Assembly (NCBI GenBank): GCA_026003195.1
Contig: BPGU01000003.1
Coordinates: 124,001 to 188,000 of the forward strand
Source: Armatimonadota bacterium
Lineage (GTDB): Bacteria; Armatimonadota; HRBIN16
Direction of reading: 5' to 3'
Length of the DNA stretch: 64,000 nt
The notes beneath the pieces were generated by a model that worked only from the letters and a program-made list of their open reading frames with translations, was not told the DNA's origin and searched no databases. Below, one piece after another: positions 48,550 to 50,214 of the stretch (position 1 is its first letter; the number at the start of each line of letters is the position of its first letter). The position numbers and the translations under genes are program-made.

Positions 48550-49326
48550 TTATGTCAACCTCACCGGCACGCCTCGCTCGTGCAAATATCGCTTGAGTTG
48601 CGCAATCGTGTAATGCCCATCATGGACGATGCTGGCAATCAGCGCCGCATCTGCCATACCCTCGGTGAGGGCGTCGTACAGGTGCTCGGGCTTGCCTGCA
48701 CCGCCGGAGGCGATGACAGGAATACTCACCGCCTGCGCCACCGCCCGTGTCAGTTCGATGTCATAGCCGATTTGCGTGCCATCGCGGTCCATGCTGGTCA
48801 ACAGGATTTCGCCCGCTCCCAGTTCCTCCACCCGCTGCGCCCACTCGATGGCATCCAGTCCGGTGGGTTTTCGACCGCCATGCGTGTACACCTCCCAGCG
48901 CGGTGTGCCGTCCGGCTTCGTGCCGACCCGACGGGGGTCTATTGCCACCACCACGCACTGGCTGCCGAACCGTTCTGATGCCTCACGGATAAGGTCGGGG
49001 TTTTGTACGGCGGCGGTATTGATGCTGATTTTGTCCGCGCCCGCCTTCAGAATGCGTCGGAAATCCTCCACCGTACGGATACCGCCTCCAACGGTAAAAG
49101 GAATGAACACCTGTTCCGCCACGCGCGCTGCCATCTCCGCCACGATGTCGCGCTGTTCATGGCTGGCAGTGATGTCCAGAAACACCAGCTCGTCCGCCCC
49201 CTGCGCATCGTACAGTGCGCCCAGCTCCACCGGGTCGCCTGCGTCGCGCAGGTTCACGAAGTTCACCCCTTTGACCACCCTGCCGTCCTTCACATCCAGG
49301 CAGGGTATGATACGCTTGACCAGCAT
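48550..49326 (-). CDS. hisF: Imidazole glycerol phosphate synthase cyclase subunit HisF
   Basis: ATG 49326 (MLVKRIIPC) gives 258 aa; the upstream in-frame codons come from a dispersed repeat. HisF closes the imidazole ring using ammonia from HisH in histidine and purine (AICAR) metabolism. Catalytic Asp11 ([12 protein letters not shown]) and the Asp of [11 protein letters not shown] are present, with [11 protein letters not shown] and [12 protein letters not shown] as phosphate loops. hisH and other his genes are not in the window. The ribosome site GAGGAG lies in or beside the repeat. Confidence 0.95.
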
Positions 49327-49355
49327 AGCACTCTCCTCAGGAGCCTCGCCCTCCA
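49327..49355 (-). repeat. Copy of dispersed GGAGGGCGAGG repeat at hisF start
   Basis: On the minus strand CTGGAGGGCGAGGCTCC leads directly into TGAGGAG and the hisF ATG. It is the same family as the element at 21832-21906. Confidence 0.45.
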
Positions 49356-49405
49356 GAGGTGGGGGCAAGAATCATGCGAAAGGGGACTGCCCCCTTGTGC
49401 AGAGG

Positions 49406-49948
49406 TCAGTCCTGCGAGGGGGTCACATCGCTGAAGAACGGCAGATAGTTGCGCCACACCTCGTTCTTCGTGCCTTCGATATACTTGCTGAGGCTGATGT
49501 AGGGCACGTAGCGCGGTCGGCGCGGCTGCCTCAGCAGGGTCATCCCCGTCTGGTGCAACGGTTTATCGCCCTTCTTCAAGTTGCACTTGCGGCAACAGGT
49601 CACCAGGTTCTCCCAGTCATCGCTCCCACCGAGGCGACGCGGCACCACATGGTCCACCGTGAGGTCTTTCCCACGGTAACCACAGTACTGGCAGGTGTAG
49701 TCGTCGCGGGCGAAGATGGTGCGCCGTGTGAGTTTGAGCTCCGGCAACGGGCGCTTCACGTGATAGCGCAGCTTCACCACCGACGGCACCTGAATGACCC
49801 TGTCCACCGTGCGCAGTCGAACGCCGTCGGCGTGCAGCACTTCCGCCTTGCCCAGCAGTACGAGCACCAGCGCGCGCCGCACGTTGCATACGTTCAACGG
49901 CTCGTAGTCGTTGTTCAGCACCAGAACCTGTCTGTCCGTCTCCAACAT
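49406..49948 (-). CDS. HNH endonuclease family protein
   Basis: This 180-aa protein starts at ATG 49948 after AGGAAGGGATCG. The N-terminal half ([33 protein letters not shown]) and the HNH zinc finger ([43 protein letters not shown], in segments) match a compact HNH family. It is widespread in cyanobacteria, Chloroflexi and Deinococcus-Thermus. The four cysteines and the DHV histidine are intact. Its biological role is not established. Upstream lies a strong promoter followed by a structured terminated RNA (49975-50190), so expression may need read-through. Confidence 0.87.
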
Positions 49949-49974
49949 CGATCCCTTCCTGTTGACGGGTAACG

Positions 49975-50006
49975 AAAAAGCCCACTGCGGACACGGCAGC
50001 GGGCTT
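49975..50006 (-). terminator. Intrinsic terminator of structured leader/ncRNA
   Basis: On the minus strand AAGCCC-G-CTGC pairs with GCAG-T-GGGCTT (plus 49978-49988 with 49996-50006, one mismatch, 7-base loop), followed by a T-run (plus-strand A run ending at 49979). It lies 27 bases upstream of the HNH start codon. Confidence 0.75.
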
Positions 50007-50178
50007 GACCGACTAGCTATATCGGATACGCATCACGTGTCCGAAGCGATGAGAGCGCCAGTGTCTATCCTGCTGCACTGGCATTCCCCACCGACGCCAC
50101 CGCCTGGCGATACGCAGACCAATCCTGTTGTGTTGTCGGAACTGGAGTGGCAACACTTCACCTCATAGAAAATATAGC
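49975..50178 (-). ncRNA. Putative structured ncRNA or attenuator leader upstream of HNH gene
   Basis: A transcript from the promoter at 50185-50214 would start near 50178. Its first bases GCUAUAU (50172-50178) pair with AUAUAGC (50016-50022) just before the terminator, closing the molecule. Inside are hairpins GTGTTG/CAACAC (50151-50156 with 50130-50135), CGCCA/TGGCG (50095-50099 with 50105-50109) and GCCAGTG/CACTGGC (50057-50063 with 50076-50082). No protein frame on this strand is convincing. It could be an independent small RNA or a riboswitch-like leader controlling HNH. It does not match 6S, SRP, tmRNA or B12 patterns that I can recognise. Confidence 0.55.
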
Positions 50179-50184
50179 AATGGT

Positions 50185-50214
50185 ATTATAGCCACAATCT
50201 GGCGTTCTTGTCAA
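50185..50214 (-). promoter_or_regulatory. Strong minus-strand promoter for structured RNA/HNH
   Basis: TTGACA (50209-50214) and TATAAT (50185-50190) with an 18-base spacer, both perfect consensus hexamers on the minus strand. Confidence 0.8.

What the first reader, a model, noticed from the sequence alone, without database searches (positions are those of the whole stretch)
49975..50214. Strongly promoted, terminated structured RNA upstream of an HNH endonuclease
Perfect TTGACA-N18-TATAAT drives roughly 170-200 nt that begin with GCUAUAU, close with AUAUAGC, contain at least three perfect hairpins and end in an intrinsic terminator 27 bases before the HNH start codon. It is either a new small RNA or a riboswitch-like attenuator for a nuclease of unknown role. 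An RNA-guided partnership is a speculative but testable idea.
Basis: partly seen in the sequence, partly recalled or inferred. Interest (0 to 1): 0.62.

Follow-up and report, generated by a model that had tools for sequence, protein, structure and literature searches.

The report
Leader-ORF attenuator before HNH nuclease gene
What looked like a new structured RNA is a short messenger for a 47-residue leader peptide that ends at a transcription terminator just before a core nuclease gene, an arrangement found through much of the phylum Armatimonadota, where translation of the small ORF most likely decides whether the nuclease is made.

Summary
They lie on the minus strand, 50214 to 49973, directly before the HNH gene (49948-49406). 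The claim of a structured non-coding RNA is not supported. Without the terminator the RNA folds no better than shuffles (z -0.43), and the GCUAUAU/AUAUAGC helix is not kept in relatives. Instead a small ORF fills the transcript: GTG at 50156, TAG at 50015-50013, 47 codons, preceded by GAGGTGA. It is present in all eight congeners that have the HNH gene, with a coding signature: variable sites 8/6/18 by codon position, pN/pS 0.27 over the last 24 codons. The architecture recurs across Armatimonadota. A strong terminator just before HNH occurs in 96 of 119 orthologs examined, against roughly 1-15% of other genes. Leader ORFs often end exactly at the terminator stem (27/55 loci, 2/56 control terminators) or run through it. 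No trp-like antiterminator is general. I conclude it is a leader-ORF (uORF) transcription attenuator of pyrBI type: ribosomes at the ORF's end block the terminator and allow HNH read-through. Coding and architecture are shown by sequence comparison; mechanism and signal are inferred. A functional small protein is the main rival.

The parts
50185..50214 (-). Consensus promoter TTGACA-N18-TATAAT
   Evidence: 12 of 12 match. The -35 TTGACA is invariant in 8 congeners and the -10 is TATAAT in 7 of 8.
50158..50164 (-). Shine-Dalgarno-like GAGGTGA of the leader ORF
   Evidence: (A/G)AGGTGA/GAGGTG-type sequence before the GTG in all 8 congeners.
50013..50156 (-). Leader ORF, 47 codons plus TAG: MLPLQFRQHNRIGLRIARRWRRWGMPVQQDRHWRSHRFGHVMRIRYS
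   Evidence: Frame kept in 8 of 8 congeners with in-frame length changes. Last 24 codons: variable sites 8/6/18 by codon position, pN/pS 0.27.
49973..50006 (-). Intrinsic terminator (11-bp stem, 7-nt loop, TTTTT), stem starting 6 nt after the leader ORF stop codon
   Evidence: dG -19.7. Helix 100% paired in 8 congeners with one compensatory change.
50036..50043 (-). CGGACACG inside the ORF (codons F-G-H-V), invariant; complementary to the terminator loop
   Evidence: Alignment A3. Possible RNA pairing, significance not established.
49988..49995 (-). CGTGTCCG in the terminator loop and first base of the 3' arm, invariant
   Evidence: Alignment A3.
49406..49948 (-). Target gene: HNH endonuclease, 180 aa
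   Evidence: PF01844 2.9e-16, PF14279 1.7e-14. Single-copy core gene of the phylum, 182 of 194 high-quality genomes.
48550..49368 (-). hisF, next gene on the same strand (neighbour of HNH only in this genus)
   Evidence: PF00977 3e-89; adjacency seen only in the genus.

Best explanation
The element is the 5' leader of the HNH mRNA, a uORF-controlled transcription attenuator. A strong sigma-70 promoter makes a ~205-nt leader carrying a 47-codon ORF whose stop codon lies 6 nt before an intrinsic terminator. HNH starts ~25 nt after the terminator and has no promoter of its own, so it is expressed only by read-through (shown by sequence; no transcripts seen). Inferred: when a ribosome closely follows RNA polymerase, or pauses near the end of the leader ORF, it covers the base of the terminator hairpin, the terminator fails and HNH is transcribed. 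When translation lags or is absent the terminator wins. This is pyrBI-type ribosome-coupled attenuation rather than the trp/his antiterminator type. The signal (translation stress, slowed polymerase, or a peptide-specific pause) is unknown.
For: Coding: frame kept in 8/8 congeners, third-position variation, pN/pS 0.27; coding-type substitutions in other families. Regulation of HNH: terminator dG below -12 just upstream of HNH in 83 of 90 orthologs of 20 families and 13 of 29 in more distant families; control genes with dG below -15: 6% in the own genome, 1-15% in four others. Consensus promoters and leader ORFs in most families. Geometry: a stop codon at exactly -1 of the stem in 27/55 non-redundant loci against 1.8% background and 2/56 control terminators (Fisher 1.6e-8); in f12/f31/f30 the ORF runs through the terminator towards the HNH start. 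Mechanism precedent: in E. coli a stop codon 5 bp before a terminator cuts termination from ~90% to below 10%, dependent on translation; the pyrBI terminator lies inside its leader ORF, whereas amino-acid attenuators keep >20 bp (PMC4824070). No general antiterminator.
Against: No expression data. If Armatimonadota transcription outruns ribosomes, nearness of stop and terminator would not matter. Peptide sequence is conserved in the C-terminal half, more than plain ribosome coupling requires. Peptide homology between this genus and other families is not significant. Several families lack the terminator. Orthologs in Chloroflexota mostly lack the layout.
Confidence: 0.6

Rival explanations
1. 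The ORF encodes a functional small basic protein, transcribed as its own short mRNA with its own terminator. HNH downstream gets a constant low dose by leaky termination; the protein may act with or on the nuclease.
For: Strong purifying selection on the last 24 residues, not only on codons useful for stalling. Single-copy and always next to HNH: all 30 profile hits at E<1e-3 are directly upstream of HNH. Strong promoter and own terminator.
Against: N-terminal half nearly unconstrained (pN/pS 0.72); sequence too divergent between families to be recognised; no match in Pfam or NCBIfam. Stop codon fused to, or beyond, the terminator in many families is unusual for ordinary genes here. ORFs running through the terminator do not fit a separate short mRNA.
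Confidence: 0.2
2. Nascent-peptide sensor: the conserved C-terminal motif arrests the ribosome in response to a ligand or stress, and the arrested ribosome blocks the terminator.
For: Conserved C-terminal half with variable N-terminus, stop codon next to the terminator.
Against: In A4 the distance from the only invariant residue (Asp) to the stop varies between families; no recognisable arrest motif. Homology across families not significant. Not separable from plain ribosome coupling by sequence.
Confidence: 0.12
3. Structured non-coding RNA, riboswitch or guide RNA partner of HNH, as first proposed.
For: Strong promoter, invariant terminator including its loop, and complementarity of CGGACACG to CGTGTCCG in the loop.
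Against: Fold z -0.43 without terminator; covariation at shuffle level, closing helix 68% paired; codon-type substitution pattern; no Rfam match.
Confidence: 0.04
4. Histidine attenuator for HNH-hisF: the His-rich stretch HWRHHRFGH senses His-tRNA.
For: His-rich stretch in the ORF; hisF directly downstream of HNH in the window and in most congeners.
Against: The same leader layout precedes HNH in other families where hisF is not nearby, and several of those peptides have 0-2 His. No antiterminator. Invariant residues are not only His.
Confidence: 0.04

Closest known systems
pyrBI attenuator of E. coli (pyrL leader peptide)
   Same: Strong promoter, ~44-codon leader ORF, intrinsic terminator reached by the leader ORF, structural gene shortly after, no antiterminator needed (PMC4824070 for terminator inside the leader ORF; the rest from general knowledge).
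   Different: Different gene (nuclease instead of pyrimidine synthesis); UTP-dependent pausing not tested; here the stop codon usually sits at the stem base instead of beyond the terminator (except f12/f31/f30, some f7/f24/f6).
ilvB-II motif of Corynebacterium (PMC10272879)
   Same: A candidate structured RNA upstream of a gene that turned out to be a conserved uORF controlling transcription attenuation.
   Different: There the peptides are enriched in the regulated amino acids; here no such enrichment matches the target gene.
uORF attenuation of a DUF1127 gene in Sinorhizobium meliloti (PMC12218461)
   Same: uORF translation sets premature termination before a gene; proposed to monitor translation.
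   Different: No intrinsic terminator there (probably Rho); here a strong intrinsic terminator.
trp/his-type amino-acid attenuators
   Same: Leader peptide and terminator before the gene.
   Different: No general antiterminator (the f31 family is a possible exception) and no codon run for one amino acid; stop codon too close to the terminator.
IscB/IshB and omega-RNA (OMEGA) systems
   Same: The HNH domain resembles those of IscB and Cas9; size close to the RuvC-less IshB proteins (recalled).
   Different: No RuvC domain, no omega RNA, chromosomal single-copy core gene, and the upstream RNA is coding.

Membership tests
Leader-ORF (uORF) transcription attenuator | Leader ORF that is really coding | tested here: met
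Leader-ORF (uORF) transcription attenuator | Intrinsic terminator between promoter and regulated gene, with no room for another promoter | tested here: met
   in this genus; elsewhere.
Leader-ORF (uORF) transcription attenuator | Leader translation changes read-through | not testable with these tools
   Needs reporter assays.
pyrBI-type attenuator | Leader ORF reaches or overlaps the terminator | tested here: met
   Stem starts 6 nt after the stop here; stop at -1 in 27/55 loci; ORF through the terminator in f12/f31/f30.
pyrBI-type attenuator | Polymerase pausing controlled by UTP | not tested
   No assay; no analysis of pause sites.
trp/his-type attenuator | Antiterminator pairing between leader and terminator 5' arm | tested here: not met
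   Best duplexes no stronger than shuffles on average; f31 suggestive only.
trp/his-type attenuator | Leader codons for the amino acid made by the operon | tested here: not met
   hisF adjacency only in this genus; His count varies widely between families.
Riboswitch or structured sRNA (Rfam) | Conserved secondary structure with covariation | tested here: not met
   no Rfam family.
OMEGA (IscB/IsrB) RNA-guided system | omega RNA next to the gene | tested here: not met
   No Rfam match; the RNA is coding.
OMEGA (IscB/IsrB) RNA-guided system | RuvC domain in the nuclease | tested here: not met
   Only HNH families found in a 180-aa protein.
IshB-like HNH protein | PLMP-like N-terminal domain plus HNH | tested here: inconclusive
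   AlphaFold2 model pLDDT 89; Foldseek matches mostly the HNH part; weak longer matches to IscB (9k2z) and RuvC-only IsrB (8dmb, E 0.1).

The most novel reading that the evidence does not exclude
A fast-evolving family of arrest peptides or translation-sensing leader peptides, kept through much of the phylum Armatimonadota, that uses a stop codon fused to a terminator stem to switch on a core HNH nuclease under translation stress.
Probability: 0.2. Interest if true: 0.68.

Novelty: new member of a known kind. Interest (0 to 1): 0.48.

Why it matters
The HNH family is a core gene of unknown role in Armatimonadota (182 of 194 high-quality genomes) with relatives in Chloroflexota and other phyla. 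Finding that in Armatimonadota it sits behind a translation-dependent attenuator suggests it is normally held down and switched on by a change in translation or transcription, and gives a direct way to find its inducing condition. It also shows how a strongly promoted, terminated leader can pass for a non-coding RNA, and gives a sequence criterion (stop codon fused to the terminator stem) for finding pyrBI-type attenuators in uncultured phyla.

Tried and rejected
(1) 6S RNA or another Rfam RNA: no match. (2) Conserved RNA fold: z -0.43 without terminator, covariation at shuffle level. (3) His attenuator: hisF adjacency only in this genus. (4) General trp-like antiterminator: mean z about 0 in most families; f31 -1.07 with a tempting 1:2/2:3/3:4 arrangement, f38 -3.34 in one sequence. 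(5) One peptide family across the phylum: the core x-L-R-x-L-E-D-x looks shared in f17, f38, f39 and some others, but a profile without this genus does not find this genus's peptide, nor held-out members, so homology is not claimed. (6) Same layout in Chloroflexota/Eremiobacterota: mostly no terminator. (7) Known protein families for the peptide: none. (8) Literature on this leader or on Armatimonadota attenuators: no papers found; IshB primary paper not in the library.

Full report
What is there. On the minus strand, a consensus promoter TTGACA-N18-TATAAT (50214-50185) is followed by ~205 transcribed nucleotides that end in an 11-bp intrinsic terminator (stem 50006-49978, T-run to 49973). The HNH gene starts at 49948, about 25 nt later. 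The gap gene is divergent (50329, plus strand) and hisF follows HNH on the same strand.

It is not a structured RNA. Rfam finds nothing. With its terminator the RNA has a folding z of -1.77; without it -0.43, with 54 of 200 shuffles folding at least as well. Homologous DNA exists in 7 other genomes of the genus, always next to HNH; the two congeners without it are 77-80% complete and lack HNH too. On the alignment of eight (A3), the closing helix GCUAUAU/AUAUAGC forms in 68% of cells, and paired cells and covariation do not exceed column shuffles. The terminator alone is fully paired, with one compensatory change.

It is coding. All eight genomes have an ORF of about 46 codons beginning with GTG just after a GAGGTGA-like sequence and ending 6-7 nt before the terminator stem. 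Length differences are multiples of three. Over the last 24 codons, variable sites at codon positions 1/2/3 number 8/6/18 and pN/pS is 0.27; the N-terminal part is nearly unconstrained at 0.72. Fourteen residues are invariant (G, Q, D, HW, HRFGHVMR, R). No protein family matches it, and a profile of it finds clear matches only in this genus.

The architecture is widespread in the phylum. The genus belongs to Armatimonadota (HRbin16 group). HNH is a single-copy core gene: 254 of 291 genomes, 182 of 194 high-quality ones. In 83 of 90 orthologs from 20 families an intrinsic terminator with dG below -12 lies just before HNH (74 below -18). For other genes of the own genome the figure below -15 is 6%, and 1-15% in four other families. 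In a further 29 orthologs from more distant families 13 have it, so it is common but not universal. Most have a near-consensus promoter 150-270 nt upstream of the terminator, and leader ORFs with coding-type substitutions in several families. HNH orthologs of Chloroflexota and others mostly lack it.

Geometry points to ribosome control. Counting stop triplets without any ORF choice, a stop codon lies at exactly -1 of the first paired base of the stem in 27 of 55 non-redundant loci (background 1.8% per offset). Control terminators of ordinary genes show this in 2 of 56 (Fisher 1.6e-8). The frame ended by that stop is open for a median of 51 codons, against 28.5 in the other frames (p 0.02). In families f12, f31 and f30 the leader ORF runs through the terminator towards or into the HNH start. 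In E. coli a stop codon 5 bp before a terminator reduces termination from ~90% to below 10% in a translation-dependent way, the pyrBI terminator lies inside its leader ORF, and amino-acid attenuators instead keep more than 20 bp between the two (PMC4824070). A general antiterminator was looked for and not found. So pyrBI-type ribosome-coupled attenuation is the best-supported mechanism. The ribosome step is inference from this geometry and from E. coli; no expression data exist here.

What remains open. The signal, the direction of control in the cell, and whether the peptide itself matters are unknown. C-terminal conservation in this genus is stronger than plain coupling needs, which leaves room for a functional small protein or an arrest peptide. 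Resemblance of the peptide core between families (L-x-x-L-E-D) is clear only among a few families and not significant for this genus. The hit list of the combined profile (30 of 30 at E<1e-3 directly upstream of HNH) includes sequences used to build it, so it shows absence of other copies rather than independent discovery. The 119 orthologs examined were taken from ranked hit lists and chosen handles, not at random.

The HNH protein. Its HNH domain matches PF01844 and PF14279 and resembles those of IscB and Cas9, but no RuvC domain was found. A PLMP-like N-terminus, which would make it IshB-like, is only weakly suggested by the model. Nothing here supports an RNA-guided role.

Noticed in passing
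50036-50043 and 49988-49995 (minus strand): CGGACACG in the ORF and CGTGTCCG in the terminator loop are perfectly complementary and both invariant in 8 congeners; possibly a kissing interaction, not significant by the general duplex test.
   Followed up: partly
L111, L114, L118, L122 (family f31), about 60-100 nt upstream of the terminator T-run: TGGAGCACAGGCTCC before a terminator GGGGAGCCTG...GGCTCCCC gives a trp-like 1:2, 2:3, 3:4 arrangement inside a leader ORF with the conserved RWSTGSWFG motif.
   Followed up: partly
L114, L118, L121 (families f31 and f12): The leader ORF stop codon overlaps or abuts the HNH start codon, suggesting translational coupling.
   Followed up: no
window 49406-49948: The HNH protein's N-terminus ([13 protein letters not shown]...GKAEVL) resembles the PLMP domain of IscB by eye; it may be an IshB-like core gene of unknown role.
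   Followed up: partly
window 48550-49368: hisF directly follows HNH only in this genus; other families sampled do not have it within ~1.3 kb.
   Followed up: yes
L185, L187, L190, L191 (Balneola/Gracilimonas relatives): HNH orthologs in Balneolaceae also have a strong terminator ~90 nt upstream, without a recognised leader ORF; it may belong to the preceding gene.
   Followed up: no
L264, L265, L266, L251, L270, L250 (families f20, f45, f44, f26): Leader ORFs of distant families end with an FRI/FRV-like motif shortly before the terminator.
   Followed up: no
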